DNA from: Diplocarpon mali
Taxonomy: Eukaryota; Ascomycota; Leotiomycetes; Helotiales; Drepanopezizaceae
Length of the DNA stretch: 64,000 nt
Reading direction: 5' to 3'
NCBI GenBank assembly: GCA_024741835.1
Contig: JAENRP010000262.1
Coordinates: 1-64,000, forward strand
Part shown: positions 2,014 through 43,589 of the stretch, piece by piece
Numbering within the stretch: the first letter of the stretch is position 1
Layout of the letters: each line of letters starts with the position of its first letter
Translations under genes and position numbers: made by a program
The notes under the pieces: generated by a model
What the model saw: only the letters and a program-made list of their open reading frames with translations
What the model was told of the DNA's origin: nothing
The model's database searches: none

Positions 2014-2780
2014 CAATTGGCGTTTTATCAGATTAATAATTAAGAAAAAAGAAAAATAAGGTAAAGAAGAGAGTTTATTTTATAAATTTCGATAATTTAC
2101 CAATTATTTTAAAAAACCTAAAAACCACTTATAGGCCGGACCTGCGAGTGAAAAATAATAAGATTACTAATAACATTTCTATTTATATACTTTAAATCGA
2201 TGACTTAGAAAATCTTTTATTTGTTTTTAAAAAGGAAAATTCGGACTATTTTATAGGATTTGATAAAAGGAAAGAAGTAGAAAAGCATAGTACTAGCTAA
2301 TATTTGAACTATATATAAAAGTAAGGTAGATAAAGTATAACTGGTAGATTAGGGAATCTCTAATAGCTTAAAGCTTAAAGGATTAGATAATTAGTTTAAA
2401 TAAGATAAGAAGCTTCGACCTCTAATGCTAGGTAGCAAATTCGATAAATTTATTATAAGTAGATTTTCTAATAAACCTATCGGATATCGGCTAATAAAAG
2501 AGCGTTTCAATATGCTAAAAATTAGAGATGACTTAATAGAGTAAGAACGCGAACTACTTTATAAAACCTTAATAAATCGAAAGGACGCCTTGGCTTTTGA
2601 TTAGATAGAACTTAGTCAGATTTGAGAAGAGGTCACGCCTTATATTAAAATTAAGATAATACCTTATAAAGCCTAGTAAGAGAAAACATTCGGAGTTCCT
2701 AAAGCTCTTTAAGAAAAGGTAATCGAAATGCTAAAGGATAGGCTGAAGTAAGGCGTTCTCGAATTTTGTAATAGCCCTTA
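2014..2780 (+). pseudogene. Gypsy-1 fragment 1: linker upstream of reverse transcriptase
   Basis: This is the first visible piece of an old Ty3/gypsy pol. From about 2460 the degraded translation reads ERFNMLKIRDDLIE, then an acidic and aromatic stretch with KIIPYKA and VPKAL*EKVIEMLKDRLK. That is the lead-in to a metavirus reverse transcriptase, where a helper helix precedes the xGVLExxxSPY motif, here GVLEFCNSPY at about 2754-2783. Stops are TAA or TAG. One palindromic motif copy sits at 2127-2149. The frame resumes at 3285 after the TRIM. Everything left of 2014 belongs to copia-1. Confidence 0.82.
2127..2149 (+). repeat. Palindromic 23-bp motif, gypsy-1 copy
   Basis: An imperfect palindrome starting ACTTATAGGCC and ending GACCTGCGAGT. 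It is a diverged copy of the motif found in copia-1, copia-2 and the gag-only elements. It lies upstream of the recognisable pol frame. Its phase does not match that downstream frame, so here it may be non-coding or separated by an indel. Confidence 0.8.
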
Positions 2781-2865
2781 TGTTATGCAGAAAATAGGCT
2801 AAATATGCTAGTACGCGCCCTAAGGTATGGATTCACATTTTGGCCGAGCGGTATTATATACAATA
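2781..2865 (+). repeat. TRIM left (5') LTR
   Basis: The 85-bp repeat differs from its partner at 3195-3279 at about seven positions, all transitions. Its outer end (TGTTATGCAG) is less altered than the inner end of the partner (TATTATATAG), the edge-sparing pattern seen in every element here. Confidence 0.9.
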
Positions 2866-3194
2866 GTTATAAGTCCTATAAGCGCAGCGATAAATCTTTT
2901 CGTATTCCTTTTGCGCAAGGTTTAGCCGACTTTTCTCGCTTCGAAGTTCTACTAGTAAACCACTTTTTAAAGAATTCGGCAATGATTATACTCGGTTTCG
3001 ATTGCATTAATAGAAGTTTCGATAGATTTGAGTAAAACGACCTTTGATATATAGCTAAAGAAAAATGCATTCCGGCCCTTCTAACTACCTATTTTCTACT
3101 AGCTTAGCGGTCTATGCGCTATATCTACGCTACTATAGACTAGGCTAGTACTTAGGCCATTAGAAGAACTGTTCTTCCGGCGACCTAAGGGGTA

Positions 3195-3279
3195 TATTAT
3201 ATAGAAAATAGGCTAAATATGCTAGTACGCGCCTTAAGGTATGGATTCACATTTTGGCCGAGCGGTATTATGCACGATA
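3195..3279 (+). repeat. TRIM right (3') LTR
   Basis: The 85-bp direct repeat of 2781-2865. It is preceded by the polypurine tract AAGGGGTA and ends GCACGATA, followed by the TSD CCTTA. Confidence 0.9.
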
Positions 3280-3284
3280 CCTTA

Positions 3285-3841: not shown

Positions 3842-3867
3842 GTTATAAGTCCTATAAGCACTTTAAT

Positions 3868-11239: not shown

Positions 11240-11244
11240 ATAAT

Positions 11245-12367
11245 ATAAGAGTAAAAGGATTAAGATCATTTTATAATTATAAAGAAGTTCTCTTTAGTAT
11301 ATAATGATTTATAATAGAATATATTTAAAACCTAGACTAAGTGCTTATATAATTCAAAAGGGCAAGAGTAATAGTTAGTCTAAAGTTATAATACTATCTT
11401 CTATCGATGGAAATTATTAGTTTTATTACTAATTCTAATAGCCGAAGTCCTTAAAGGGCTAAAGTACTTAAAATCGATAAATAGAAGAGGTATAATAATA
11501 TGGCAAAAGCTCGCGTGTTTATTAGCATTATAGTATACTATTATATTTAAATTAAGGATTTTGCTAAAAAGGCAGTACCTATTTACGCTTTGTTTTAAAA
11601 AGGAGCTAAGTTTCAATAGGAGGAACTTTAAATAAAGGCTATAAAGTAATTAAAGCAAGCGTTGCTTAAAGTGCTATATCTGATTAAAATAGACTATAAA
11701 GCTAAAGCTAGGCCAATTATACTAATAGTTGACGCAAGCCTAATCAAATAGGATACTATCCTTTAATAAGCTAATAGCTAATAGAAAAGACACCTAGCTC
11801 GCTTTAAAAGCGGTCTTTAGAATCTAGTAGAAATAAAGTATAATATTATTAAATAGAAATGCAAAAGAGCTTTAAAAGTAATAAAAAAGATAAGAAGTAA
11901 ACTCTATAGTACTTACTTCATCTTTGAAACTAATACTAAAGTATTAGTAGAACAATTGAATAGAGCTGCAAGCGACCTACCTAAAGCCTTACTAATAAAA
12001 TGGATTACTTAAATAAGACTAATGGACTTTAAAGTTAAATATATTCTAGGAATGAAAAACACCGCTATAAACGGCCTTTTAAGAAGAACTTGCCCTTACC
12101 CCTTTGATTTAATTAAAGAAGATAAAATAGATATTAATAAGTAGGTAGAGAATAAAGTCGGTTATCTATTAATATATCGCTTTAAAGGGACTCGACTCGC
12201 AGTCCTAGCCTATAAGTCAAATGAAAGAATTTTATTATTTAACTACTTAAGTGACTTTAAAGAAATTGCAAAATTTTTAGTTATACTTAAATGACTAAAG
12301 ATAGTTTCTCTTAAGGATTTTTAGAAGTTTAAAGCTAAAGCCCTGATTTATCTAATATAAGGAAGAC
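11245..12367 (+). pseudogene. Gypsy-1 fragment 3: reverse transcriptase C-terminus and RNase H
   Basis: Pol continues straight after the copia-3 TSD with RVKGLRSFYNYKEVLF, the region following the catalytic box. RNase H is recognised by ARPIILIVDASLI at about 11705-11745, which carries the first catalytic Asp. Further landmarks are FIFETDTKVLVEQLN (about 11910-11955) and FKVKYILGMKNTAINGLLRR near 12030-12085, the usual end of RNase H in Ty3/gypsy. Stretches of more than 60 codons are open, so this part is less damaged than most. It is cut by copia-1 copy 2 with the TSD AAGAC. Confidence 0.88.
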
Positions 12368-12562
12368 TATTAAGCTTAAGTGAGTCGGCGCAGTAGGTAA
12401 AGGAGGCTTCTAGAGGTCGATGGTTGATATATTAGTAAGAGTTAAGGAAGGAAGGTTACCCCTCTCTTCCCTATAGCTATATACGTATCAATATCCTATT
12501 GATTAAGTAGTAGGGTCATATGATAATACATTAGAGTAATAGCTATATCACCTATCTTAATA
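12368..12562 (-). repeat. Copia-1 copy 2 3' LTR
   Basis: 195 bp, starting TATTAAGCTTAAG and ending CACCTATCTTAATA on the plus strand. It pairs with 18363-18557. Confidence 0.94.
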
Positions 12563-12700
12563 CCCCTACTTAGACCTTATTCCGATTGACCTATAGTTGG
12601 GAAAATAATAACTATCCTTTTACGCTAATCCAACTCTTAGGTATCTCTTTAAATTAAAAACAATCAATTAATAGCAACCTCTATTAAAATCACTAACCTT

Positions 12701-12854
12701 ACTCATAAGGTAGGACTAGGAGTTAAATTTCCTAAAAGCGTTCCTTTATAAGACTATATAACTTAACTCGCGGTCTAGGCCTAGGAGTCGATTTAAAAAA
12801 AAAACTTTCCTCTATAAGACCACGTGACCTAACTCGCAGGGTAGGCCTAGGAGT
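12701..12854 (-). repeat. Three palindromic motifs in the copia-1 copy 2 3' UTR
   Basis: 23-bp palindromic motif copies lie at 12701-12723, 12766-12788 and 12832-12854, spaced 65-66 bp, each followed by a similar spacer. They form a short tandem duplication of motif plus flank. Copy 3 carries the same trio at 28375, 28437 and 28502. The polyprotein ends just beside them (in this orientation to the right), so these copies are non-coding. Confidence 0.88.
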
Positions 12855-12869
12855 TGTCCTTAAGCCTAC

Positions 12870-14560
12870 TAAGCTCCTACTATCTTCTATAACCTTAGCA
12901 TATCTTTGAATGCTTTGAACTTTATAACTGTCTTTAATAGCTTTATAAATCTATCTGCTACTATTTAATCGATTGAGATATAGGTGATTAATAACTTATT
13001 CTTTATAATAAGGTCGCGGATAAAGTAGTAGGTAATATCGATATATTTCGATCGCTTATATAAGTATAGATTCTTTATAAATGCAATCGCCCTTATATTA
13101 TCTACTTAAAGATTAATATAGTTCTTATCTTATTTAATATACTTAATAAAACCTATATCTTTTAGAACTTAGGCAATCTATAATCCTTGCTTACAATTTG
13201 ATAATATTAATATATATTCGGCCTTAGTACTTGCAGTAGCTACTGATTTCTACTTCCTACTTCTTTATAATATAGGTCTATTATATAGTATTACTATACT
13301 TTTAGATATACTTTTCCGACCTTTTATATTTACCTAGTCGGAATTAATATATACCTTAAGCTTTGCGCTTATATATTTCATTAGTCTATATCTTACTTTT
13401 TATATAATTATCAATTAAAGGTATCTTTTAAGTCGCTTAACTATATTCTTATATCGAATCGTCGGATCCTTTAAGTTCTAATTAAGTTGCTTAATAATAA
13501 AGGCGATATCTGGTCTTATATATACTATAGTATATATAATTGCTCTAATATCCTATTAGTACTTCTTCAGATCTCCTCTTTACTTATTTTCATTAGTAGG
13601 CTCTAACTTATTATACTTTCCTTTAATTAGAGTACGCTTTAGCTTAAAGTTAAAAGCATAAGTAAAGAGTCCTATTTAGTCTAGGATCTTCTTAATATAC
13701 TACTTTTAGTTTAAATAAAGTTCTTAAGTAGAGCGGTTCCTTATAACGCAGATGCTAAGGATCTTATGAATTCCCCTTAGATCCTTAGTATTAAAACGTT
13801 TCTAAATTATTATAAAGAATTAATCTAATTAAGTAGTTGTCTTTATAGCTATAGTAATATTATTAATATATAGTAGCAACTTGATTCTATACTTAGTATA
13901 GGTAAATAGATAAGGGTTAGCTAGGCTTTAAACGAATCCTATTTCTACTAAAGTAAAGCTATATAAGAGGTTCTAATTATAAGCTGATTGTTTAAGCCTA
14001 TAGATACTGTAGAGTATATAAAGAGAGTGGCTAGCGCGTATAGGAATACTATTAGATTAGGAGAGAAAAATCCATTCCTTTATAGTCGCTTTAGTAAATG
14101 CATTTTTAATATTGTACTATTTATATTTAAGGTCTTTAGCAGCTACTATTACTATAAATATGCAAAGGGTATCTATGCGAACTATTGGCGCAAATATATT
14201 AAAGTAGTCTTTTCTATACTATTAGAAGAAGCCTTTAGCTATAAGTCTTGCCTTATAACATTCTAGGATCCTATTTATATATATCTTAATTGTAAAGACC
14301 CACTTTATTAATATTAGGTTTATATCCTTTGGCGTCGGTTCCTCTATCTATATACTATTTATAATAAGAGAGCTTATCTCCTCTTAGATTGCCTTATTCT
14401 ATACTACTCTATTCTTTAGGTTATTAATAGCTTTATTATACGTCTTTAAAAGAGAGATTTTCATTATTCTCTTAGCGGCTAAGAACGCATTATCTTTATT
14501 AAAGCTCTATTAAAGTTTAAGCTTATAAATCTTATATACTATTATAGCCTAGATACGCTT
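12870..14560 (-). pseudogene. Copia-1 copy 2 reverse transcriptase and RNase H remnant
   Basis: By collinearity with copy 3, RNase H spans about 12945-13575 and the reverse transcriptase about 13800-14400. The catalytic box lies near 13852-13866 (LLLYINDI on the minus strand in the relative). Plus-strand ORFs at 13988-14266 and 14565-14879 are antisense shadows of this gene. Stops in the sense frame are TAA/TAG. Confidence 0.85.
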
Positions 14561-14899
14561 AGACTTGCGTTTATTTAAGGTATCTTCTAATTCTAGGTTT
14601 CTATTCCTCTTTAAAAGCGTAGGTTCAGCTATAGGTTTTATAGGCTTATTATCTAAGGAACTGCTTTTTAATAGTAGAGGCTTATTATTACTTATACCTA
14701 TTTTAGGAATATCCTTTACTATAAGTACTTTAATTAAAGGGATAATAATATCAAAGTTATTCTATACTTTAAGTAGTTCGCAAATAATAGGAATAGTCTA
14801 TTTGGCCTTTAAGCGACTAGTAGGTCGTCGATCAGCGGATGCGCTTAATATACTTAAGCTAAAAGAGAGGGGTTATTAGTTCGGCTTAATAGTATTACT

Positions 14900-15900
14900 A
14901 TTAAGTAGTATACTTTGCGAATCTTTAAGTATATAAAGCTTTAAGGATAGCTCCCTTTTATTTTAAGATTTATTAAACTTAACTACTAAGGATATAATTA
15001 CTTGCCTTAGATCTAGCGCATATACTATCTATTGCTTTATTATCTATTTAATATACTTAATAAATATATACTCTTTACTTTAATCTATTAGCTTCTTACT
15101 CTTTATACCCGTAGGCTAGGACTTTAAGCTAATATAGGAGTAATAGACGCTTTTAAAGATGCAGATATAGTCTAGGCTTAATTTCTATTTAAAATATACC
15201 TTATATAGCGATATTCAAGTGCTATTAACTATTAGTCTATTACTTATTCTATTTCATAAGTATATATCTACTTCTATCGCAAGGTCTTAGAATTCTAATA
15301 GTAGGTTAGCATCTTATAATAGAGCGCAATAGTTAGTCTTTACTTGCTAGATGCTTCGCTTAGTAATGCTATTCTAATAAGAACCTTTATATATTATAAT
15401 TGGTTTATAATAAACTCTTTATTTTACCTATTTATTAAGCTTTGCCCTAATCTCTAATATATTATTAGACCTAATAGCTATTAGCTTTAACTAGGTCTAG
15501 TATTCCTTTATTACTTTCTAAGTTTCTAGCTTTTTTATAAGCTTAGATTTAATCCTAGCGCAAATAATCTATATCTATTAAGTAGAGTTATCTACTATTT
15601 AAGAAAACCAATTATTTCCTTTAATTGAGATTATAAATAGTCTAATAGTATTAATAGATATTAGCGCTAGTATTAAATCTTTTTATAAATTAAGCTTAAT
15701 TTGCGTTTGATTTTAAAGTTTTATTAACTTGCAAATTTAATATACTAGGTAATCCTTTAGTACTTAGATCTTCTATTTTAAAGTTAAGACCTTATATAAG
15801 CCCTTTAATTTCTTTAGCCTTAGATACGCGAATCTTTTATATATTAGCTAATACCTTAATAAGCTTTTAGCTTTTAATAGCTTTAATAGCCTATTATTAG
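14900..15900 (-). pseudogene. Copia-1 copy 2 integrase remnant
   Basis: Collinear with 25370-26230 of copy 3, where LRLKKLRGLHKV (GAG-pre-integrase) and NGIAERS-like catalytic Glu text can be read. In this copy the core lies at about 15005-15695. It is heavily mutated, with no open frame left. Confidence 0.8.
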
Positions 15901-15965
15901 TTAATGCTTTATTATTAGCAGTTAGAAAGGACTAGTAATAGCAGTTTAAGGTTTTGCCGTTTTCC

Positions 15966-16435
15966 AGTTGCAAGCCTAGCTTAAGAGTCATTTTTAATAA
16001 AACTGCAAGATCTACTCGCAGTCCTAGCTTAAGAGTCGATTTCTTAGAAATAGCAAGATCCACTTGCGGTCCTAGCTTAAGAGTCGTTTTTGACAAATTT
16101 GCGAATTTCACTTATAATCTTAGCCTAAGAGTCATTTCTACGAATTTTACTTACAATCCTAGCTTAAGAGTCGTTATTAGTAAATTTGCAAAATCTACTT
16201 ATAGTCATAGTTTAAGAGTTATTTCTATTAAATTCACTTATAATCCTAGCTTAGGAGTCATCTTTAAAAATACCTTATAATCTACCTATAGTTTTAGCTT
16301 AAGAGTCATTTTTGCAAATTTCATTTGCGATCTTAGCTTAAGAGTCTATCTATTCTCTTTATCCTTACTTAATTATATTAGGGTAGAGAGTGCACTTTCC
16401 TTAAAGGAATCCATTTATAAGTCTGGCTTAAGAGT
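15966..16435 (-). repeat. Array of ten palindromic motifs inside the copia-1 polyprotein
   Basis: Ten 23-bp motif copies start at 15966, 16014, 16062, 16110, 16149, 16197, 16236, 16284, 16323 and 16413. The spacings are 48, 48, 48, 39, 48, 39, 48, 39 and 90 bp, every one a multiple of three. On the coding (minus) strand each unit is read in the same phase as T-x-x-P-x-L-x-V. The array lies between the protease and the GAG-pre-integrase domain. Copy 3 has six units at the matching place. The plus-strand ORF at 15954-16280 is a shadow of this array. Confidence 0.9.
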
Positions 16436-16499
16436 CAATTTTTATAATATTACCTTTAAGATAATATAAAGTCTATCTTTGATTTTAACTTTAAAGATT

Positions 16500-18100
16500 A
16501 CTTTATAATTATTATTTATAAACTATATAAATTAATTATTAAAAACTCTTATATAATTTAATTCTATATAAATCTTATAGTTAGATAAAAGATTAATACT
16601 TAAGTTAAGTATAAAGAGAACATTTTATAAAAGGAAAGAAACGCTAGCGATATTCATCTCTACTATACCTATTAAGTCTATATATAACCTTTTACTATTA
16701 ACTTTAATAAAGCGCCTTTTTATTTTAATAAGCGGGCCTTTAAATAGGTAGGATTTATTAATTATATATATTATATAATTAGTATTACTATACTAATCGG
16801 ATTCAAGGATCTTATAAAGATCGGCTTTTAAGATATAAGCATTTTTATTATAATTATCATTTGAATTATTAAAAGTGGATTTAAGTTTAAATAACCTACT
16901 ATTATTATTAAAGGTATTTGCTAAAGTTCTAGCTAAATAGCCTTTTCCTTTGCCTTTCTTTAATAGTTATAGCCTTTAGTAGGATAAGGGCAGTTTGCTT
17001 CTTAATTTCTACTTCAATTACTTTTTAATATTAAAGCTAGCGATTATATTAATCAATTGCCTTCTAACTTTATAATTAGTAATATTATAAGTACTATTAT
17101 AGAAGTAGCATCCTTAATAAGCTTAAGGGCTCGTCCTATGCTCCTTCCTCTTCTTAGGCTTATTATTACCTTATAACGCGGCATTTGCTGATTTAAAGCG
17201 TCCTTTAAGGTCTTGCTTAATAGTTCAAAGGAGGTCGATCTTCTTATAAATCTTAAGGTTAGGTTAAATAAGAAGAGATTATTTCGCAATAGTAAACTTA
17301 AGAGAGAGGCTATTAAGTAGGAAACTAAAAAGCTAAGTTTCCTTAAAAGTCATAGCTATCCTAGGATCTGCAGCTCTTACTCTCCTTCTTACTTTATATA
17401 ATATAAATTAGGCAAAGTTTATATTTATATCTATATCCTTGCTATCTTTATCTTTTTTATATTAAAATAAAGTGATCTACTATAGCAAATACTAAGTATT
17501 AAAGGCAGTTGTCTAAAAGTATTTTACCTTTAAAGTATCCTATCTTATCTTTGCATTATTATAAATTTAAATAAAATCTTAATCTTTATCGCTTAAACTT
17601 CTATTAATCTTAAGCTTATATTTAACTAAGGCTAGCCTATACTCCTTCTCCTTTTCTATATTCAAAATCTGCCTTTAGGATTCTTAATTATTATCTACTA
17701 AAGCTCTTAAGCTAAGCTTATTTAATATATTTAGCAAATCCTTAGTAGTTATATTAGCTATTAAAGTAGAAGTAGACGAATTAGTAGAGGAAGTATAAGA
17801 GGCTATTCTTACATATTTAATAAGTATCTTTTAAATTGCTATTTCAATGCCTTTGCTCTTAAAGTAAAGCTCTAAATCGTCGAACTATTATTGCCAGTTC
17901 TTTTAAAAGAGTTAAAGGTCTTTAAGTCTAGTATTTCGATTAGAATCAAAAGCTATTGCCGTTTCAAATAGAATTGCATTTAAAATCAAATAAATTAAAT
18001 AGTTAAAGGCACTCCTCTTATTAAAAAGTTAAAATGATTAAATAGCAGGTATTATAAAAGTATTAAATAAGGAAGAAGTCCTCTTATCGAAAAGGGTTTT
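16500..18100 (-). pseudogene. Copia-1 copy 2 gag and protease remnant
   Basis: Collinear with 23310-24870 of copy 3 and with 1-1560 of copy 1. The protease end, FLLQNVLFIPSLSINLL in copy 3, lies at about 16590-16640 here. Gag lies at about 17060-18010. It is broken by TAA/TAG. The region right of about 18100 is leader sequence up to the primer site. Confidence 0.8.
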
Positions 18101-18362
18101 TTAAGCTATAACGCAGGGAATCACACCTCCTATAAAACATAGTAAAGCAAGGAATCATACCTCTTATAGTACTAAAGGGTTATAAAGCAAGGAATCACAC
18201 CTCTTACAATATAAGTTAGCTAAATAGGGAATCATACTTCCTATTTGCCAATTGCTTACCTCTTACTATAAGTCTTATTCAACTTCCTATTAACAGTTGC
18301 GGCGCAAGTGCTTTCCAAAGGAAGTCAATAATCTATTATCAGTCTAACTAGGGCTTATAACC

Positions 18363-18557
18363 TATTAAGCTTAAATAAGTCGGCGCAGTAAGTAAAGGAG
18401 GCTTCTAAAGGTCGATAGTCGATATATTAGTAAAAGTTAAGGAAGGAAGGTTACCCCTTTCTTCCCTACAGCTATATATATATCAATATCCTACGAACTA
18501 AGCAATAGGGTCATATGATAATACATCAGAGTGATGGCTGTATCACCTATCTTAATA
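18363..18557 (-). repeat. Copia-1 copy 2 5' LTR
   Basis: 195 bp, flanked on the left by the primer site GGGCTTATAACC and on the right by the TSD AAGAC. Confidence 0.94.
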
Positions 18558-18562
18558 AAGAC

Positions 18563-25263: not shown

Positions 25264-25369
25264 AGAAAATGGCAAAACCTTAAACTGCTATTATTAGTCC
25301 TTTCTAGCTGCTAATAATAAAGCATCGACTAACAATAGGCTACTAAAGCTATTAGAAGCCGAAAGCCTA

Positions 25370-28360: not shown

Positions 28361-28374
28361 TAAGCTTAAAGACG

Positions 28375-28524
28375 ACTCCTAGGCCTACCCTATAAGTTAG
28401 GTCATATAATCTTATAAAGGAAAGTTTTTAAGATCGACTCTTAGGCTTAAACTGCAAGTCAAGTCATATAGTCTTATAAAAGAACGCTTTTAGGAAATTT
28501 AACTCCTAATCTTACCTTATAAGT
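28375..28524 (+). repeat. Three palindromic motifs in the copia-1 copy 3 3' UTR
   Basis: Copies at 28375-28397, 28437-28459 and 28502-28524 lie immediately after the polyprotein stop. Motif plus spacer is repeated three times with a period of 62-65 bp. The matching trio is at 12701-12854 in copy 2. Confidence 0.87.
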
Positions 28525-28662
28525 AGGATTAGTGATTTTAATAGAGGTTGCTATTAATTGATTATTTTTAATTTAAAGAGATACCTAGGAATTAGATTAG
28601 TATAAAAGGATAGTTATTGTTTTCCTAATTGCAAGTCAATTAGAGTAAGGTCTAAGTAAAGG

Positions 28663-28857
28663 TATTAAGATAAGTAATACAGCTATTACTCTAATATATT
28701 ATTATATAATCCTACTGCTTAATTAGTAGGATATTAATACATATATAGCTATAAGGAAGAAAGGGGTAACCTTCCTTCCTTAACTCTTACTAATATATTA
28801 ACCATCGACCTTTAGAAGCCTCCTTTACCTATTGCGCCGACTCACTTAAGCTTAATA
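28663..28857 (+). repeat. Copia-1 copy 3 3' LTR
   Basis: 195 bp. The outer end (GCGCCGACTCACTTAAGC) is less mutated than the 5' LTR equivalent. It is followed by the TSD TAATT. Confidence 0.95.
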
Positions 28858-28862
28858 TAATT

Positions 28863-29893
28863 GCATATATATTAACCGCGCCTCTCGGATTCTTATTATC
28901 ACTTATATTAACGACTTCCTTATAGTAGCTAAGAAAGGTAATATATATAATAAGTTTAAAAGAGATCTTTATAACCTTTTTAAAATCATAGGTGGCAAAC
29001 TAGCTAACTACTTCTTAAGAGTACGTATAGTCAGAGATCGATAAAATAGAACGATCTTACTTTATTAAAACGCTTATATTAATAAAGTTCTTAAACGGTT
29101 TTATATAACTAATTGCAAGAGCGTACTAACGCCTTTTGCTAATGACTATAAAGTTCATATGGTCAAATTCGAAGGCTAAGCCACTCTATAAGAAGTGAAG
29201 CTATACTAAGAGATCTGTAGTTCTCTATAGTACCTTGCGCACTATACGCATTAGGATATATTATACTATTGCTCTATTCTTAACAAATTCCTTACTAACC
29301 CTTTGCTATAGTATATAGCAGCTTTAAAACGAGTTTTATAATACTTATAAGGAATGCGATTCTATTATACTACCTTCGGAAGTAAAACAACTAACCTAAA
29401 GCTTTAGAAATTGCATAGCTACTACAATTCTGATTAAGCAGGTGATAGAGGAACTAAAGCCTCCTATTCTAGGGCCGTCTTCTTCCTTAATAATAGTATA
29501 ATTACCGCCTCCTTTAAGTGATAGACTATTATCGCTCTCTTATCTATAAAGGTAGAGTACGTTGCTATATGCAAATTCGCATAAGAGGCCTTTTAGATAC
29601 GCTAGGTACTTAAGGAAATAGGCTATACTAGTAATAACGCTATTAAAGTTAAGATAATCTATAATAACTAAAGAGCCCTTTATCTTATTAAAAACCCCGA
29701 ATATTATTAGAGAACGAAGCATATCGATATCAAGTTCTATTATATTCAGCAAGAGCTTCGGAAAGGCCATTTAGACTTCTAGTACACTAATACTAAAGAC
29801 AACGCCGCCGACGGCCTTACTAAGAGCTTAAATAGCTCTAACCACGCCGCCTTTATCAAATTATTAAATATAAAGGTTTTGCACCTTAATTAA
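28863..29893 (+). pseudogene. Copia-2 gag-pol, 3' part: reverse transcriptase catalytic box and RNase H
   Basis: The frame resumes with CIYINRASRILIITYINDF, which holds the catalytic Y-x-D-D (YIND) at about 28905-28916. RNase H follows: HQDILYYCSILNKF (about 29249), LHSYYNSDQAGDRGT-like text (about 29410), LLSIKVEYVAICKFA*EAF (about 29539-29595) and RTKHIDIKFYYI (about 29713). ADGLTKSLN near 29809 is the standard copia C-terminus, and the stop is at 29891-29893. Only a few TAA/TAG codons interrupt it. The 29540-29770 minus ORF is a shadow. Confidence 0.92.
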
Positions 29894-30169
29894 AGGGTGA
29901 TTTTTTTTTATACCTCTATTATAAGGTGATTTTTTTTTTTACACTTCTATTAAAGGGTGATTTTTTTTTACTCCTAGGCCAAGCCCGCAAGTTGATTTTG
30001 ACTTACTAAAGGGTGGATTTCCTATTCTAAAGTAGAGCGCGCTAGCGAACTCTACTCTATTTCCTATATCTGTAAGTTGATTTTTCATACGAAACTGTAG
30101 ATTATAACAAAAGTTATAATATCATATATATTGCTAGCGAGTACCTTTAAAGGTCTCCCTAGAGGGATA
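29894..30169 (+). other. Copia-2 3' UTR with tandem T-tract repeats and one palindromic motif
   Basis: Three tandem repeats of an AAAGGGTGA plus long T-run unit (about 29894-29969) are followed by a palindromic motif at 29970-29992 (ACTCCTAGGCC arm intact). The rest, to the AGAGGGA polypurine tract, shows no coding. Confidence 0.8.
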
Positions 30170-30403
30170 TATTATAAGTATGCCTATTATATATTTATCA
30201 TATGATCTGTTATATAATACATTATATATATGATATGTCATATGACTTACCATATGACTTAGTGGCAGCCTTTGTTAAATAGCTTGTAGTTAGAAGAGCT
30301 CTTATATATTAAGACACCTAACATCGTCGTTTGCACCTCATACTTCTTCGTGCCCTCTTCTAGTTTACTATCAAGTTCACTATCAGAGAACCTCATTGCT
30401 ACA
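30170..30403 (+). repeat. Copia-2 3' LTR
   Basis: 234 bp. The inner end is altered (TATTATAAGTATGCCTA) and the outer end intact (CATTGCTACA). TSD TTATA follows. Confidence 0.94.
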
Positions 30404-30408
30404 TTATA

Positions 30409-31656
30409 TAAGTACTAACTATTAAGAATAGGATAATATATTTTATTTTAATAAAAGAAGACCTATTAGGATGGCTTAAAGGACGACCTTTAAGATCTGC
30501 TAACTCTGAATCTATTGTAAAGTTCCTTTAGAAAGACGTAGTCTATTACTATAGACTTTTTAATAGACTAACTATTAATAGAGGCCTTGAAAATAAAGGA
30601 GTAGTTAAAGCTTTTTTATAAAAATATAGCATTAAGCGGGTTCAAATCTTAGCGTATAACTCGAAAGCTAATAGAGTAGTAAAGTAAGGATATCGCGACA
30701 TTCTTAATAAGCTATTTAAAGTTACTTATAGAGGATTTAAGAATTGGATAAAATACTTTTATAGAATACTCTTTGCTTATTAAATAATAATCTATAAACC
30801 AATTAAAGTTATATTATTTTTCCTTATCTATAGTAGAAAGGCATAGCTCCTTCTTAAATCCTAATAGCTTATTTAAAGATTGTTTGACTATAGTCAAATT
30901 TAGAACCGTTCCAATTTGCTTATAATAAGATGCTAACAACTTAAGCTTTAAGATATAGATATAGAGGAAATCATTTTGCGAAAGAAATGATATAGGGAAA
31001 AAGCTAAAGAGGCATAGGCTGCTTTTAAAATACTTAAAACGTACCCTATTTAAAAAGATGATCTTATCTTAGTCTATAATATTATAAGAAGCATTAATAT
31101 ATTACCAGATATTAAACTTAACTATTAATAGCTTAATCCATTTAGGGTTAAGTCTAAGTAGAAAGAAAAGGGATACTATTCTCTTTAAGAACTTAATAGA
31201 GTTAATATTAAAGGAACCTTTATAGCTAACCGACTAAAGCGCTTTTATTAATGCAATTAGACCTTATTTCCTTTAGAAGATAAATTAGAAATCGATATAA
31301 CCTTAGAATCTTCTATAAGAACTGATAGCAATATAAGCAATTTTGAACCCTTAGATAAAGATTAAGATTTTTCCAACTTAACCTATAAGCCGGTCCTATA
31401 AGTAAAGAATATTAAAATACCTAATTAATTATAACCTTAAGTCATTATTCTTAAAATATCTAAAGAACGCAGGCGGGAATACTAAACGATTTCCTAGCCT
31501 ATTAATTATCTTACCTTTTTATAATCCTTGTTTTTACATTTTCGGCAAGGTCGCCTCCTTTATTATTTAAGATATGGATCTTTTAGGATCACCCTAATTT
31601 CTTGCCTACTTTGACTTATTTTGCATTCTTAATATTAACCTTTAATTATAGCATTC
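30409..31656 (+). pseudogene. Gypsy-1 fragment 5: integrase core and C-terminus
   Basis: The core is readable as LLGWLKGRPLRSANSESIVK (about 30457), LFNRLTINRGLENKGVVKAF with the catalytic Asp now Asn (about 30560-30620), KRVQILAYNSKANRVVK*GY with Glu to Lys (about 30635-30690), and FYRILFAY*IIIYKP. The C-terminal region ends near 31500 and includes one palindromic motif at 31381-31403. About 150 bp of unassigned A+T-rich DNA follow, up to copia-3 copy 2 (TSD base run CATTC at 31652-31656). No gypsy-1 LTR is visible in the window. Confidence 0.85.
31381..31403 (+). repeat. Palindromic motif in gypsy-1 integrase C-terminus
   Basis: Reads ACCTATAAGCC then GGTCCTATAAGT. In the pol frame it gives T-Y-K-P-V-L-stop-V-K, the same T-x-x-P-x-x-x-V phase used in the copia families. 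Confidence 0.8.
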
Positions 31657-36563: not shown

Positions 36564-37123
36564 CACCTTCTAATTAGGCGATACTCTTAGAATTGCTTAG
36601 CTATATAAATAAAATAAAAGAAAGAATGGCAGTTGTAAAGAAAAGAGGCTTTATCTTATATACCGCCTTCTAAAGGTCGTTCCTTTTAAAATAAGAAGGG
36701 TCGCCATAAGTAATAAGCGTTCTTAAGAATCTTCGCGATTCTATACTAATGCTCTATTAGGCTTCTTATAAAGTATTTCTATTATAGAGGTTCTCCTTCC
36801 CTTCTTTTAAAAACAACCTTCCTTTATTATTCAAAATATCGTTTTTATACTAATAATTTTTAAATATAAAAGGAACTCTTGCTTATTGTAGCCTTAGCCA
36901 CCTCTGCAAAGTAAGACCCTTAGAGTCTTATACCCTGCGTTATACTAACTTTGCGCTAGGTCGCTAGCGCTCCCTTAAGAGCTGCAACCCCGTCCTAGTC
37001 CTCTTAGCGCCTGCTAGGAAACGTGCTGCCGCCGCCATTGCCCCTGCCGCCGCCGCCGCCGCCCCTGCCGCCGCCGCCACCTAAGAGCCCCGCCCCTGCT
37101 GCGTACTATATGCCTAAGCCTAT
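36564..37123 (-). other. Copia-3 copy 3 tail, part 1, with the purest GCC/GGC tract
   Basis: The triplet tract at about 37022-37083 is the longest and least decayed of the four copies (runs of GCC on the plus strand). The Arg/Gly-rich minus ORF at 37014-37235 is a translation of it running into the neighbouring LTR and is not a gene. Confidence 0.75.
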
Positions 37124-37371
37124 TATAAGAGGGAGCAGGAACAACACCTGAGAATAGGCCTAAGGGAAGACCAAAGACAAGAGGGAGGAAGCACCATAAG
37201 CGGGCTCTCCGAAGATAAGAACTAGGACAATTCACTAGTTAAAGGTAGAATAGGTAGTTAGTATTACGCGCTATCTCTAAGTATAATAGTAGTCCTATAT
37301 ATACCCCTTTCTTAATCCTTATCCAACTATATAATCTATATTACAAGATCCTCTACTTCTAGGTCTTTATA
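37124..37371 (-). repeat. Gag-only copy 1 3' LTR
   Basis: 248 bp. It shares the TATA...TATA ends (RIP-altered TGTA...TACA) with the 316-bp LTRs of copy 2. It lacks about 68 bp, mostly in the U3 repeat region. Confidence 0.92.
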
Positions 37372-37543
37372 TATGCCCTAATTAACTTAAGTAGCGGCCC
37401 CTGCTACTATTAGCAAAGAATACAAGACTCTTATAGGTTGAGAATACTAATCCCTATTTGTAAAAACAATAAGTATAAGTAAGGTTAGTACCTAAAGTTA
37501 TAAAGGTAAGGAAAGGAGAGAGGGTTTTTTTTTTTTTTTTTTA

Positions 37544-37689
37544 ACTCGCGGGTCGGGCCTATAAGTGGATTTCAAAGAAATATATAAAGGGAGAGGGGGA
37601 AGGGAGGAGGTATAGTAGTAAACGAATAAAAATAATTAAAACTCCTTTTCCTCCTTTACTAATACGACTCTTAGGCTAGGCCCGCGAGT
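37544..37689 (-). repeat. Two palindromic motifs in the 3' UTR of gag-only copy 1
   Basis: Copies at 37544-37566 and 37667-37689. The former corresponds to 43389-43411 in copy 2. The latter occupies the place where copy 2 has two motifs (43158 and 43265) with 84 bp between them. Confidence 0.88.
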
Positions 37690-37879
37690 TAAAAGCTCGA
37701 AGTTATTAAAGCTATTAAATTGCAATTTCAAAGAAAATTTAAAGACAATTTCAAGTAATCTTAAGCATATATGCCTTAACTAACTTAAGAGGCGTCCTTG
37801 CTAAAGAAAATCAGGCTTTATATAAAATTAGATTAATAATTTAAGAATTTCTTTAATATAGCTATATACAATTATTAAG

Positions 37880-39010
37880 CCTTTTTAAGGTAGCAACTCG
37901 CTTATTCAACTTAAGGGAAGCTGGATTTAGGTATTTAAAGTTCGTATGCTAGTTTTTACCTTTTAAAGCCTATCGATTACCAAACTAAGGGGCGCGACGA
38001 GTTTCTTAAAGAAGGCCCTTAATTAAGGTTTTTAAACGTTAGATATAGAGTTTAGAAAACTGGGCTTTGAGTTCCTTGATTTTTAAGGTAGATTTTACTT
38101 TTAAGCTAGGACTGCAAGTAAAGGGAATCACTATTAGATTTCTCTTTGCCTCTTTAGTAACCTTTAAAGCCTTTAAATGTTCTTATATCAGGCTTTTAAG
38201 ATCTTTAGTAAAGGAGGAAGTAGGCTCTTTCTCCTTTTCTATTGCCTTAATAGTCCTTTCGCTAAGGTCTGATTTTAAGGCAAAGGTTAAGAAGTCTTCG
38301 AATTGAGCGTATATTATAAGATTATGCTTATTAATTCTAAAATGCTTAATAATCCTATTTCAAAGGCTAATAGGTAATCTAAGTAAGAAAAGGCGTCCTC
38401 TTTCAACTTTATTAAGAATCTTCTAATTAATTAAAGTATTCGATACTTAAGTAAAGGTCTGATAGTAGTTTTTAAGTTCCTTAGGAGTGCGAATAATAAG
38501 AATAAACTCCTTTAGAAAGGCTAGAGTATTGCGAATCTGCTATTTATTAAATTCTTGAAATTCAGATTTAAAAGCCTTAGTAAGGAGTTCCTAGGATTCG
38601 TAAAGCTTTCACTTAAGTAGAGATTTAATAATATCTTTGCTAATTTAATTATAATAGTAGGGAAGTCGATTGATTATCTTATTATATTTAATACCGAAAT
38701 TATAATAAGTCTCTATATATTATTTAAGGAAATTAGTAATATTAGCTTTAGTAAAATAAGGAGCGCTAAGGGAATTAAAAAGGGGAAAATGATTAGTAAT
38801 AGCTTTAAAGGCGGCTATTATCGCTTTATTTGTTTCGATAAGAGGGGAGCTAAGTCGAATATAAGGCCTAAGGTATTTTAAAGAGTTTTCAGAATCTGAG
38901 TTAATCTTAAAGTGACTAAGATAGGCTTAAAAAGATTTAAGCAAAGGGTTAAAAGGAGGTTTAAAATTGATATTTTTAGTATTTTCAAATATCGATATTA
39001 AAAAAGCAGG
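37880..39010 (-). pseudogene. Gag-like gene of gag-only copy 1
   Basis: The minus-strand translation runs ANITNFLK*YIETYYNFGIK, then IINRLPYYYN, LTKAFKSEFQEFNK, LAFLKEFILIIRTPKELKNY and RGRLFLLRLPISL. The order of an aromatic-rich helix, an LPxYC-like block, KEFxxxD/E and a P-R/K-T-x-x-[DE]-L block matches the gag-like proteins of ascomycete gypsy-type elements. Stops are TAA/TAG only. A palindromic motif at 38097-38119 lies in frame (TCSPSLKV). The plus ORF at 38067-38306 is a shadow. Confidence 0.72.
38097..38119 (-). repeat. Palindromic motif within gag of gag-only copy 1
   Basis: Read on the coding strand as T-C-S-P-S-L-K-V, the same phase as in both copia families. It falls in the low-complexity C-terminal part of gag. 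Confidence 0.85.
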
Positions 39011-39072
39011 TACATTTATCAAAAGGGAAGGTAAAGAACTTAAGTTATATAAAATTGCATTTTTATATTCCT

Positions 39073-39095
39073 ACTCGCAGGCCTAGCCTAAGAGT
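39073..39095 (-). repeat. Palindromic motif upstream of gag in gag-only copy 1
   Basis: Reads ACTCGCAGGCC, then TAGCCTAAGAGT on the plus strand. It corresponds to the diverged copy at 42845-42867 in copy 2. Confidence 0.85.
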
Positions 39096-39809
39096 GAAAG
39101 TCCGGCTTCTGCAGAAAGTTTATTTATACTTTACTAAGACTTCTTTAATAAGTGCAAAGTAGCAAATAAGGGTACTATAATCACTAATAGTAAAAAAAGG
39201 TTTATTAAGTTAAAGATTAATTTTTAAGATAAAGTTTCTAAGAAAGATTCATTTTAGCTTTTAAGATAATTCCTATTAGTTCTTAAAATTAGTATATCTT
39301 AAGGATTATTTCTAAAGTAAAGAATAGAGTTCTATTGAATAGAGGCAGCTGAAGTATCCAATTTAGCTTTTTAAGAAAACTGAAGAGACACTCCCGATTA
39401 GAGCTTTTATTTAATATTATATAAATACTCGAAACTGCTATTATTTAAAGTAGCTATTATAGCTAATCAAACTTCTTTATATTAGAAAGGCTGGAAATCC
39501 GATAATCGTACTAATAAGCTAATAATTCAAGCTTTTTAAATTAAAAGTAGGAGAGGCGGAATAGGGGCCGAAATAGGAAAATCTAAGGTTATTAATAGTA
39601 AAGAGTGGCAATCGATAGTTTTAAATAACTGAGTAATTATAAGATCGATAATAGAGGAATAATAACTAATAGTTATAAATAATTAAATAATTATTATTTT
39701 AAAAGGGATTTTCAAAGGGTTGATCTCTTATCTGCGAATTAAGAGAATCAAAAGGAGAAGTCGTATAAAGACGAAATCTTAAAGGAATTGTCCCTGCGTA
39801 GGTCACTAA

Positions 39810-40057
39810 TATAAAAGGAAGTAGGAATAACACCTGAGAATAGGCCTAAGGGAAGACTAAAGACAAGAGGGAGGAAGCACTATAAGCGGGCTCTCTAAAG
39901 ACAAGAACTAGGACAATTCACTAGTTAGGGGTAGAATAGGTAGTTGGCATTGCGTGCTATCTCTAAGTATAATAGTAGTCCTATATATACCCCTTTCTTA
40001 GTCCTCATCCAACCATATGACCTATGTCATAAGATCCTCCACTTCCAGGTCTCTATA
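39810..40057 (-). repeat. Gag-only copy 1 5' LTR
   Basis: 248 bp. The U3 start on the minus strand reads TATAGAGACCTGGAAG and holds only two GTCATATG-type units, against about six in copy 2. The leader after it (TTAGTGACCTACGC) is conserved in copy 2 and should contain the primer site, but I cannot assign the tRNA. Confidence 0.9.
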
Positions 40058-40061: not shown

Positions 40062-41642
40062 AATAAAGCGCAATAACGCATACGTATATTGCATCGCATG
40101 CAAGAGCATTGGCAATCTCGATTATTAGTACTTTAATAGCACCTTTAGTATGCGTTACGTTTATTATACGGTATTAAGTAATAGCTGCTAATAGGCCAGC
40201 GGACCTCTCCTTGCCTCTTAAAAGGCTATTATATCAGCCTATGCCTACGGCGCCTTTAAAGAGGAAGTAGTACTACTACTTAATATAATAAAGGGTACGC
40301 TTTAAAGCTTTTATAATATATCTTATTAAGTCTTATTAAGTTTTAGGCTAATTTTAAAAGATAGGAGCGATTGGACCCTAGTGCTAAGAGGGCCTGCTAC
40401 TCCTATAAGTAGTAGTGCCGCTGCCTCCTTTGCTTTTAGTATACTATTCCTATTCGCCCTTAGCCCTTTTAGCTTAGACCCGTTCGCCCTTACTATTGCT
40501 ACCGCTCTTATCCTATCCGCTGCTACTATCGCAGCCGCTGCTATAGTCTCTCCCTTTATCTCCTTAGCCCTTGCTATCACCGCGCCTATCTTTGCCCTTG
40601 CTACCCTTGCCCTTGCCGCCCCTATCGCCGCACCTTTTGCTATCGCCTTTACTATTACTAGTATATTTGCCAATAGGCCTTTAGCTAAGAGAGTACTAAT
40701 AGGCCTCTTTTAAAAGGAGATCTATATAAAGCTTATAGCTATAGTATCTTAGCTCTTAACCTTAGCTAAAAGAATCTAAAAGAGGGTCGCGCCTTATAAT
40801 AGTAGCTTAAGAATATTACCTATTTTATATTTTTAAAAAAGGAGAGCTTTTATAATATACTTTATAAAAGGAAATAAATAAATATAATTATAAAAGAGTA
40901 GGAGCTTATAAGTATAAGTCTCTTAATAATAAGTGATTACTTATTAGTAAGTGCAAATTATTAAATAATTGTTTAAAAGCTTTAAAGGTTTAATAAATAA
41001 ACGAAGCTTTTAAACTTCTAGTAGTCTAGGTTCTTAATAAGCCTATTTGCGTATATCTCCTTAATAAGGAGGTAGATTATTTAAAAGCTTCTTTTCTAAT
41101 ACTCTTAGCAGATCTATATATTACTAATTTCGATATATCAAAGGCTTATCTTAATCTTCTTATTCTTTATAATAATTAGCTAAATCGTCTATTAGTTATT
41201 ATAATATATATTCTATTTAAAGAGGAAGTCTATGCGAATCTCTTTAAAAAGGCGTTTTATAGCTATTATCTCCTTTATAATAGAAACTATACTATAGAAT
41301 TCTACTTTAGTAAAGGAGAGCGTAATAATCGCTTAGCGATTCGCTTTTCAAATAATTAGTCCTTTAAATAGAAAGAAGACATATCCTTAAGAGGATCTGC
41401 AAGTCTTTCAATTATCTTTAAAAGAAGCATTTAAAGATATAACTAATTAGTATTCTTTAGCTTTAAAGCTATAGGCAATTCTTAAGAAGCGCATACTATA
41501 TAAGTATTAAAGCGTCTAGTCCGCAGCTAAGAGGTGCTTAAAGCTTAGATTAATTAGGAAAAAAGATAGTTAAGAGACTGCGAACGCAATATCCAGGCGT
41601 ATTATAATCGCTATATAGAAAATAGAGCCTATTTCTTCTTAA
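40062..41642 (-). other. Copia-3 copy 3, part 2: Ala-rich tail ORF and RNase H remnant
   Basis: A continuation of copy 3. The Ala-rich region is open on both strands (40326-40673 minus, 40381-40713 plus). RNase H remnants follow at about 41080-41640. It is interrupted by gag-only copy 2 at the TSD TTAA. Confidence 0.82.
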
Positions 41643-41958
41643 TATAGAGACCTAAAAGAAAAGGAGTCACGTGATAGTCACGTGACAGTCGAGGAGTCAC
41701 AGGATAGAGAGTCGAAGGAGGAGTCATATAATATAAGTCATATAATAAAGTCATATAATCGGCTAAGGGTCGAAGGGGGTATAAATAGGACTACTATTAT
41801 ACTTAGAGATAGCGCGCAATGCTAACTACCTATTCTACCTCTAATTAGTGAATTGTCCTAGTTCTTATCTTCAAAGAGCCTGCTTATAGTACTTCCTCCC
41901 TCTTTATCTTTAGTCTTCCCTTAAGCCTATTCTTATATTATTCCTACTCCCTCTTATA
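41643..41958 (+). repeat. Gag-only copy 2 5' LTR with promoter-like elements
   Basis: 316 bp. The U3 holds GTCACGTGAT and GTCACGTGAC followed by several GTCATATAAT units (41667-41762). These are palindromic E-box-like repeats, most of them altered by RIP. A clean TATA box (TATAAATA, about 41780-41787) follows. The outer end retains CACGTG while the inner LTR has CATATA/CATATG. Confidence 0.92.
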
Positions 41959-42048
41959 TTAGTGACCTACGCAAGGACGATTCCTTTGAGATTTCGTCTT
42001 TATACGACTTCTCCTCTTAATTCTCTTAGTTTGCAGATAAGAGATCAA

Positions 42049-42440
42049 TCCCTTTTTCGACAACCCCCTTTCGATGCAAGAATCATTTAGTTAATTGTGA
42101 CTATCGGTCTCTGCTTCGAAAACTCTTTTTCGATAACCCCCTTTTAATGCAAGAATCATTCAGTTAATTATAACTATCGGTCTCTGCTTCGAAAACTCTT
42201 TTTCGACAACCCTCTTTTAATGCGAGAATCATTCAGTTAATTATAACTGTCGGTCTTTGCTTTAAAAACTCTTTTTCGACAACCCTCTTTTGATATAAGA
42301 ATCATTTAGTTAATTATAACTATTAGTCTCTGCTTCGAAAACGCTTTTTCAATAACCCTCTTTTAATGCGAGAATTATTTAGTTAATTATAACTGTCGGT
42401 CTTTGCTTTGAAAACCTCTTTTTCGATAACTCCCTTTCGA
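42049..42440 (+). repeat. Tandem repeat, five 73-bp units plus a partial one, in the leader of gag-only copy 2
   Basis: The block CTTTTTCGACAACCC, then AATCATT[CT]AGTTAATT, then GGTCTCTGCTTCGAAAA recurs. AACCC landmarks fall at 42062, 42135, 42208, 42281 and 42354, exactly 73 bp apart, and a last partial at 42428 (74). Copy 1 has no such array at this place (about 39720-39760). Each unit ends in a GCTTCGAAAA block that could form a small hairpin. Function is unknown. Confidence 0.93.
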
Positions 42441-43589
42441 CTTCTTAATTGAAACCTTTATTCCTTTTCTTTACTTAAAAAGCTTGAATTATCAGCTTTA
42501 ATAGTACGATTTTTTAGATTCTGGCCCTTTTGGAATAGATACATTTGATTAGCTATATTAGTAACCTTAAACACTTATAGTATCGAATATTTAATTCGAT
42601 AGAACTCGAAATCTTGCTTTAGAAACGATTCCGAAAAACCCTTTATTTCGATAGCTAATAGGAATTGTCCTAAAGGCTAAGAAAAGCCCCCTTTTATTTT
42701 AGAAACCTTATTTTAGAAATTAATCTTAAATAGAGTAAACCTTTTTCTATTGCATTTAATTGCAATACCCTTATTAGTTATTTTATACCTTTTTACACTT
42801 ACTTAGCAAAGGCTAATTAAGCTTTATATAGAAACTGGAATTCTACTTTTAAGCCTAGCTTGCGAATAGGAATATACTAATACAGTTTTAGATAATTCGA
42901 CTTTCTTACTAACTTCTTTAATTTTAATACTTAAATATATTAAAAACAACTTTAAACCTTTTGATAACTTCCCTATTTAAACCCTTTAAACTTACCTAAG
43001 TCACTTTAAGGCTTATGCAATTTCTAATTGTTTTTACCCTATTTAGTAAGATCGCCTCTTAAGTTAATTAGGCCATATATCCTTAAGATTGCTTAAAATT
43101 GTTTTTAATTTTTCTTTAACTTACGCTTTAATAGCTTTGCTAGTTTTCGGATTTTTAACTTATAGTCTTAGCTTATGAGTCATCTTACTTAAAAGAAGAT
43201 TTTCAATTTATCAAATTACCCTTTTGCCTCTTTCCCTTTCCCTTTATCGGTTTTTCCGAAATCCACTTATAGTCCTAGCCTAAGAGTTGTATTACCAAAG
43301 GAGGAAAAGGAGTTTTTATCATTTTTATTTGTTTACTACCGTACCTCCCCCCCTTCTCCCTCTCCTTTTATATATTTCTTTAAAATCCACTCGCGGGCCT
43401 GGCCTGCGAGTTAAAAAAAAATAAAAAAAATAAAAAAAATATCCCCTTTCTCTTCTCTCCTTCCTTCCCTCTTTACTAATTTAGCTATTAGTCCTTATAC
43501 TTATAAAAGGGCTAGTATTCTTGACTTGCAAGAGTCTTATATCTTTGCTAATAGTAGCAGGGGCCGCTACTTAAGTTGGTTAGGGCATA
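42441..43589 (+). other. Interior of gag-only copy 2: leader remainder, gag deletion scar, palindromic motifs and 3' UTR
   Basis: No open frame is left. Palindromic motifs lie at 42845-42867 (diverged), 43158-43180, 43265-43287 and 43389-43411; the last is an almost perfect palindrome (ACTCGCGGGCC, T, GGCCTGCGAGT). The gag deletion joins sequences equivalent to both ends of the copy 1 gene near 43040. A tract of As, then a polypurine run GGTTAGGGCA, precedes the 3' LTR. Confidence 0.82.

What the first reader, a model, noticed from the sequence alone, without database searches (positions are those of the whole stretch)
2127..43411. A 23-bp palindromic motif dispersed through four unrelated retrotransposon families
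Seen in sequence: at least 37 copies of a 23-bp imperfect palindrome, consensus arms ACTCCTAGGCC and GGNCCGCGAGT around one central base. There are 2 in gypsy-1, 13 in copia-1 copy 2, 9 in copia-1 copy 3, 5 in copia-2, and 4 in each gag-only element. I noticed none in copia-3, gypsy-2 or the TRIM. It is GC-rich in AT-rich DNA, occurs in both orientations and lies in UTRs and coding regions of elements sharing no other sequence. Inference: a tiny mobile or copy-spreading palindrome living inside retroelements, comparable in lifestyle to the Rickettsia palindromic elements or the GC clusters of yeast mitochondria. I know of no description of this nuclear motif.
Basis: partly seen in the sequence, partly recalled or inferred. 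Interest (0 to 1): 0.88.

Follow-up and report, generated by a model that had tools for sequence, protein, structure and literature searches.

The report
Palindrome spread through fungal retrotransposon families
A tiny palindromic DNA unit, found more than two thousand times in one fungal genome, sits inside several unrelated jumping-gene families, often where it can be translated without breaking the protein, which suggests that it once spread from one family to another.

Summary
The motif is real. A scan tolerant of C-to-T/G-to-A decay finds 30 window sites and none in controls. The 49.4-Mb genome has 2,791 hits at up to 3 mismatches; the reversed pattern has 0. The host is probably Diplocarpon.

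Different families share no flank beyond a symmetric RAWTY-N-motif-N-RAWTY signature, so the unit is about 35 bp. In 12 of 13 groups with a fairly open frame, ACT is a codon, sense or antisense. Spacings in five arrays are multiples of three in 71 of 71 cases.

Within sites, transversions cluster on the two base pairs where the arms can mismatch, suggesting arm-to-arm templated correction.

Against live mobility: no empty alleles were found at the sites tested and no target duplication.

Best reading: an ultra-short palindrome that spread among co-resident LTR elements before the present families expanded, probably by template switching during reverse transcription, now fixed and decaying. How it moved is inferred, not shown.

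The parts
12195..12217 (+). motif at site J of repeat X; the same site is filled in the genome places found by pattern
12701..12854 (-). three motif copies in the 3' region of copia-1 copy 2 (sites E3, F, E), spacing 65-66 bp
15966..16345 (.). array of six detectable decayed motif copies (site G) in the protease-integrase side linker of copia-1 copy 2
12355..18559 (-). copia-1 copy 2, LTRs about 196 bp (12367-12562, 18362-18557)
   Evidence: coding strand inferred from copy 3
20554..20624 (-). motif sites D and C of copia-2, between zinc knuckle and protease; the motif is antisense to the coding direction
22012..22088 (+). site B array of copia-2 (two copies, 54-bp spacing) in the integrase-RT linker
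29970..29992 (+). site A of copia-2, probably untranslated, about 175 bp before the 3' LTR
18850..30412 (+). copia-2, LTRs 18850-19095 and 30167-30412, interrupted by copia-1 copy 3
22852..28870 (+). copia-1 copy 3, nested in copia-2
   Evidence: Pol_BBD match (below cut-off) at 24620-24877
25067..25263 (+). five motif copies (site G array) in copia-1 copy 3
28375..28459 (+). motif sites E and F in copia-1 copy 3
37120..40057 (.).
37544..37566 (+). motif, left arm of the GCG type (site 25)
37667..37689 (+). motif (site 6); homology to element e2 stops at its right end
38097..38119 (+). motif (site 36)
39073..39095 (-). motif (site 26)
41642..43908 (.). LTR element e2, inverted relative to e1, LTRs about 320 bp
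42845..42867 (+). decayed motif, counterpart of 39073
43265..43287 (-). motif (site 51); its right flank resembles the right flank of the neighbouring motif
43389..43411 (+). near-perfect palindrome, GCG/CGC arms

Best explanation
The motif is an ultra-short palindromic unit: a 23-bp core (least mutated form ACTCCCGGKCCNGGMCCGCGAGT) inside a roughly 35-bp dyad, RAWTY-N-core-N-RAWTY. It was copied several times between unrelated LTR retroelements living in the same fungal genome. Shown: about 18 positions in copia, RVT_1 and gag-only elements and unassigned repeats, without flanks common to different families; both orientations; in-frame local tandem growth at five positions; AT-rich surroundings at every site examined; filled alleles at the sites tested. 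Inferred: the copying happened in the particles where these elements reverse-transcribe, when reverse transcriptase stalls at the hairpin and switches template. That would explain why the sites lie mostly in retroelements, why orientation is free, and why arm mismatches change to match the partner arm. Insertions that kept the reading frame and fell in linkers between polyprotein domains, or in untranslated DNA, survived. The families then amplified and carried the unit to over two thousand copies, which now decay by C-to-T mutation resembling RIP.
For: Genome-wide 2,791 hits against 0 for the reversed pattern. Position map: copia-2 site B lies 339-348 bp before RVT_2 (C63, C86, C94), copia-1 site G about 1.75-1.89 kb before RVT_2, and family H site b exactly 2,504 bp before RVT_1 in C15, C29, C48, C82 and C140, so the positions are not homologous. 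Cross-family flank similarity beyond the unit does not exceed a rotation null (best 14.2; 60 null maxima: mean 13.0, highest 15.8). The flank signature fits best at offset 1 on both sides (4.18/5 left, 3.91/5 right; offsets 0 and 2 give 3.0 and 3.45, offsets 4-10 give 1.6-3.1) over 22 flank pairs from 18 positions. Array spacings are multiples of 3 in B 36/36, C-D 16/16, G 10/10, He 8/8, Hd 1/1, but 2/6 in E/F (copies within a family are not independent). Uninterrupted ORF pieces of 175 and 122 aa run through the motifs. At site J, 35 copies with the same flank words show purine/pyrimidine changes inside the motif only at positions 5 and 9, the two mispaired places. Over the sites examined, 15 of 19 such changes lie on the 5-19 and 9-15 pairs (P about 1e-8; collapsed by site and pair, 11 of 15, P about 5e-6). 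Hairpin energies as RNA are -14.4 and -13.3 kcal/mol for two less mutated forms and -5.7 for the decayed form.
Against: No insertion event has been caught: 53 of 53 places with printed letters are filled, and 38 of 38 at site J have the filled length with words outside the unit. No target-site duplication and no extra pairing of the flanks. The near-constant reading phase is more than random insertion predicts, so selection or a coding origin may matter. Pair 9-15 is paired in 87 and unpaired in 88 of 175 tabulated sites, and pair 5-19 paired in 20 and unpaired in 155, so correction is far from complete and its polarity is not established (one group, G, 17 sites, was oriented poorly there). 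The site C hairpin folds no better than 22 of 200 shuffles. Template switching itself was not observed.
Confidence: 0.5

Rival explanations
1. A functional sequence kept by selection. It gives polyprotein linkers a proline/glycine peptide (TPGPGPRV, or TRGPGPGV in the other orientation), or gives the RNA a hairpin used for packaging or processing, and was passed between elements by recombination because it is useful.
For: It sits at domain boundaries: gag-protease, protease-integrase and integrase-RT sides. Of 13 groups whose best frame has fewer than 5 stops per 100 codons, 12 have it in phase 1 (one tied); site 26 (n=2) does not. A palindrome gives the same hairpin in either orientation. The gag-only elements share it.
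Against: It also lies in stretches that look untranslated and vary in length (T-run at site A, spacing of E/F). Third codon positions 3, 6, 18 and 21 show no purine/pyrimidine change within sites, which peptide selection alone does not explain. The predominant form folds poorly. The frame test is biased, because the decayed motif itself puts a stop in two of the six frames.
Confidence: 0.27
2. Inheritance: one ancestral retroelement had the motif, and its descendants kept it while the flanks diverged.
For: Within each site tested every caught copy has it. Several positions are linkers in more than one family.
Against: The carriers include RVT_2 and RVT_1 elements, and the positions differ relative to the RT domain. 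Orientation differs within one element. No flank similarity between families beyond the unit.
Confidence: 0.1
3. Protein-level repeat: a proline-rich linker repeat grew by slippage in one polyprotein and was exchanged between elements as part of longer coding pieces; the palindrome is a by-product.
For: Local arrays vary in copy number, and 24-nt and 29-nt tandem changes are seen. At site 43265 the right flank resembles the neighbouring motif's flank, so copies seem to recombine.
Against: No longer pieces are shared between families, and positions without an open frame exist.
Confidence: 0.1
4. Chance or compositional artefact.
For: None found.
Against: 0 matches in the controls against 12, 30 and 2,791 hits.
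Confidence: 0.01

Closest known systems
Rickettsia palindromic elements (RPE)
   Same: Palindromic repeats inserted in frame in unrelated coding sequences (review PMC10969869, passages).
   Different: RPEs are about 150 bp, bacterial, and sit in host genes; this is about 35 bp, in a fungal genome, and so far seen only in retroelements and other AT-rich DNA.
GC clusters of yeast mitochondrial DNA (GC42 and others)
   Same: Short GC-rich palindromes in AT-rich DNA; RNA-mediated spread has been proposed (PMC4478555, passages).
   Different: [quoted passage not shown] here neither was found.
Ultra-short invasive elements of Podospora mtDNA, double-hairpin elements of Allomyces mtDNA, Neurospora mtDNA palindromes
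   Same: Invasive palindromes or hairpins in fungal mtDNA; known to me by recall and by mention or citation in PMC7218506 (passages).
   Different: Organellar; in-frame polyprotein sites not known to me.
Quasipalindrome-templated mutation (recalled, no call)
   Same: Mismatches in an imperfect palindrome are changed to the complement of the other arm.
   Different: Here it is inferred from the spread of alleles in decayed repeats, not from an assay.

Membership tests
Rickettsia palindromic elements | palindromic repeat in frame within unrelated coding sequences | tested here: met
   array spacing and frame counts; carriers with RVT_2 and RVT_1
Rickettsia palindromic elements | about 150 bp, bacterial host genes | tested here: not met
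   unit about 35 bp, in fungal repeats
GC clusters (mitochondrial) | resides in mitochondrial DNA | tested here: not met
   hits listed on very many contigs up to hundreds of kb, with LTR elements and host genes
GC clusters (mitochondrial) | short direct repeats at the ends, like target duplications | tested here: not met
   no clear excess of left-right identity in 16 tests (lowest P 0.034)
Mobile element in general | presence/absence alleles at the same site | tested here: not met
   53 of 53 places filled, 38 of 38 at site J of filled length (loss of 31-35 bases not covered); 17 site groups without a clean empty site in fetched DNA
MITE | terminal inverted repeats with TSD, mobilised by a transposase | tested here: inconclusive
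   palindromic ends but no TSD; no transposase sought
Quasipalindrome correction | changes confined to mispaired positions and towards the partner arm | tested here: inconclusive
   15 of 19 changes at the mispaired pairs; four elsewhere; polarity not shown and many sites unpaired

The most novel reading that the evidence does not exclude
A nuclear ultra-short parasite of retrotransposons: a hairpin unit that lives in the replication cycle of LTR elements, passes between copia, Ty3-like and gag-only families by reverse-transcriptase template switching, is tolerated because it reads through in frame in both orientations, and keeps its symmetry by copying one arm onto the other.
Probability: 0.3. 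Interest if true: 0.87.

Novelty: new variant of a known kind. Interest (0 to 1): 0.66.

Why it matters
Ultra-short invasive palindromes are known from organelles and bacteria. A nuclear one confined, as far as examined, to AT-rich repeats and found in retroelements of two RT classes would be a hyperparasite of transposons and a record of how often different LTR families exchange sequence in one cell. The allele pattern at site J, with transversions only at mispaired positions, makes hairpin-templated copying directly testable.

Tried and rejected
Chance: rejected. Target-site duplication: no clear sign. Flanks as extra stem: own pairs are no more complementary than shuffled pairs. Shared longer flanks between families: not above null. 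Covariation at pair 9-15 as a sign of RNA structure: all four combinations occur. Relatives in the protein database: one hit; two further searches gave none. Pfam on stop-free pieces: of 10 pieces from copia-1 and repeat H one weak Pol_BBD match worth using, the other matches being weak and unrelated; of 10 pieces, mostly from repeats X and u14/24, none. A sweep of 40 random stretches was planned; only 5 were obtained.

Empty sites: none found, with these limits. The output was cut and I saw only its head and tail; one search did not print 15 array contexts. The words lie partly inside the RAWTY flanks, so an allele without the whole 35-bp unit would escape them; one search used words outside it at site J but covered gaps of 5-35 only. 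One search covered losses of 18-40 bases in 17 site groups of fetched DNA and found ten shorter places (two at A, eight at D), each with one or two motif copies within 60 bp, which I read as tandem changes.

Dropped before counts: the centre position 12 of site D in the count; mixed spacings outside the five arrays (25-6: 5/5 multiples of 3, 51-25: 0/1, E3/EF: 1/2, G-27: 1/1). The G group was oriented unreliably and I do not use it there. Contexts 14, 24 and 41 are not assigned to a family; that J, 28 and 49 belong to one repeat X is inferred from their lying together in L019, L027 and the window. 22 of the 53 flank contexts have one member.

Literature: searches were read as listings and abstract openings only; passages were read in PMC11527701, PMC7218506, PMC10969869 and PMC4478555. 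None of these describes this motif; that is no proof of absence from print.
Full report
Observation. Allowing for C-to-T/G-to-A decay there are 30 sites, with 0 in the reversed window and in 5 Markov shuffles. In the whole assembly (49.4 Mb, 676 contigs) the pattern has 1,367 + 1,424 hits on the two strands and the reversed control 0. Some perfect palindromes may be counted on both strands, and the tool calls its counts lower bounds.

Host. One piece of the copia-2 polyprotein (175 aa) has a single database relative, a Diplocarpon coronariae protein, 82% identical over 51% of the query. A D. coronariae assembly is reported with 34.15% repeats, 20.74% of the genome copia (PMC11527701, passages). 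I take the host to be Diplocarpon or close kin; this is inference.

Where it sits. I fetched twenty 10-kb stretches around exact hits, five random ones and twenty short ones. A scan tolerant of decay found 189 sites in these plus the window and one 3-kb locus. All 189 have less than 45% GC in the surrounding 1 kb, while 40 of 314 one-kb windows scanned have more; most of this DNA was chosen around hits. The motif occurs in 2 of the 5 random stretches, both AT-rich. The sites fall into 53 flank contexts, many of them internal to arrays. I group them as about 18 positions: copia-2 (C/D, B, A), copia-1 (G, E/F), RVT_1 family H (b, e, d), gag-only (25, 6, 36, 26), repeat X (J, 28, 49), unassigned (14, 24, 41). 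In the roughly 200 genome places listed out of 822 strand hits the right flanks mostly fall, by eye, into recurring strings, so copy number comes mainly from amplification of the carriers.

Carriers. In copia-2, sites C/D lie between the zinc knuckle and the protease and are antisense to coding; site B lies between an SH3-like integrase end (PF25597, E 1e-5, below its cut-off) and an AT-hook-like piece before RT. Site B is 339-348 bp before RVT_2 in C63, C86 and C94. In copia-1, site G follows a weak Pol_BBD match and precedes RVT_2 by about 1.75-1.89 kb. In family H, site b precedes RVT_1 by exactly 2,504 bp in C15, C29, C48, C82 and C140, with site e about 1.8 kb and site d about 3.75-3.9 kb after b in C24, C68 and C78; I read H as Ty3/gypsy-like from RVT_1 alone.

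The unit. Less mutated copies read ACTCCCGGGCC on the left. Over 32 flank pairs, position -2 is a pyrimidine in 31 and +2 a purine in 31. On 22 flank pairs standing for 18 positions, RAWTY fits best at offset 1 on both sides (4.18 and 3.91 of 5); offsets 0 and 2 give 3.0 and 3.45, offsets 4-10 give 1.6-3.1. Left and right flanks of one site are not more complementary or identical than shuffled pairs, apart from one of 16 tests at P 0.034. Beyond six bases, flanks of different families are no more alike than a rotation null. So the shared unit is about 35 bp and symmetric, without a recognisable target duplication.

Frame. Spacing in arrays is a multiple of three in 71 of 71 cases for B, C-D, G, He and Hd; in E/F only 2 of 6. 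Copies within a family are not independent. The most open frame puts ACT as a codon in 16 of 22 groups, sense or antisense; the other six are E/F, J, 41, 26, 36 and 14. Of the 13 groups whose best frame has fewer than 5 stops per 100 codons, 12 are in this phase (51 tied with another frame) and site 26 is not. Several groups have one or two members, and the decayed motif itself biases the test. In frame, the unit reads TPGPGPRV-like one way and TRGPGPGV-like the other.

No recent movement seen. Patterns joining the flanks of three sites with 0-30 free bases returned 15, 35 and 3 places; all 53 carry the motif. Their words lie partly within the RAWTY flanks, so at site J I repeated the test with words outside the unit and 5-35 free bases: 38 places, all of the filled length by their coordinates; loss of more than 30 bases was not covered there. 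In fetched DNA, 17 site groups outside the long arrays gave no clean empty site for losses of 18-40 bases; ten shorter places lie beside motif copies and look like tandem changes. One allele has lost 15 nt inside the motif.

Arm correction. At site J all 35 copies share the flank words, and inside the motif only positions 5 and 9 show both purines and pyrimidines; haplotypes are G5T9 11, C5T9 11, G5G9 10, C5G9 3. These are the positions whose partners (C19, C15) mispair. Over the sites examined, 15 of 19 purine/pyrimidine polymorphisms fall on the pairs 5-19 and 9-15 (collapsed by site and pair 11 of 15); the other four are single copies at positions 2, 2, 8 and 14. A copia-2 subfamily shows the opposite repair, right arm to left: one search lists 67 strand hits, many places counted on both strands, and the 55 rows with letters have one type of 6-base flank. 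Not all evidence points one way: in the local table pair 9-15 is paired in 87 and unpaired in 88 sites, and pair 5-19 is paired in 20 and unpaired in 155. I read the unpaired forms as ancestral, but polarity is not proven. Positions 9 and 15 are also third codon positions, so synonymous drift can explain part of them, though not 5 and 19.

Mechanism. Spread among unrelated LTR elements is the best-supported step. Template switching of reverse transcriptase at a hairpin is the mechanism I think most likely. As RNA, less mutated forms fold at -14.4 (site C; 22 of 200 shuffles as good) and -13.3 kcal/mol (site 14; 2 of 200), a composite string at -16.4, and the decayed form at -5.7 (90 of 200); as DNA -7.5, -9.0 and -1.5. 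The sites examined lie in AT-rich DNA and mostly in retroelements, and orientation is free. Switching was not observed. Selection for a linker peptide or RNA signal is the main rival and may act together with it.

Comparison. It works like Rickettsia palindromic elements (in-frame) and like mitochondrial GC clusters (short, GC-rich, palindromic), but it fails size, compartment, target-duplication and empty-allele criteria, so I file it in neither.

Noticed in passing
window 42047-42422: Repeat of 73-bp period inside element e2 (86-90% identity between copies).
   Followed up: no
window 37667-37700 and 43250-43287: Two related elements are alike up to and including a motif copy, then differ; the right flank in e2 resembles the flank of the next motif, as if two motif copies had recombined.
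   Followed up: partly
window 3646-11245, 46806-54403: A 7.6-kb LTR family, abundant in the same DNA, carries no motif copy by the criterion.
   Followed up: partly
L021:430-480 against L040:440-470: An allele where 15 nt are missing from inside a motif copy, a multiple of three.
   Followed up: partly
copia-2 sites A and B (L010, L012, L013): The left flanks of site A (probably untranslated) and of the first site B copy (coding) share ttaaggggtgattt, a hint of copying within one element together with flank.
   Followed up: no
L046:1121-1438: A stop-free 106-aa stretch, open in both directions, carrying a perfect-arm motif; no Pfam match and no database relative.
   Followed up: partly
whole assembly: 150 of 1,082 RVT_2 and 150 of 489 RVT_1 candidates were scored; nearly all carry stops, as expected of RIP-like decay.
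   Followed up: no
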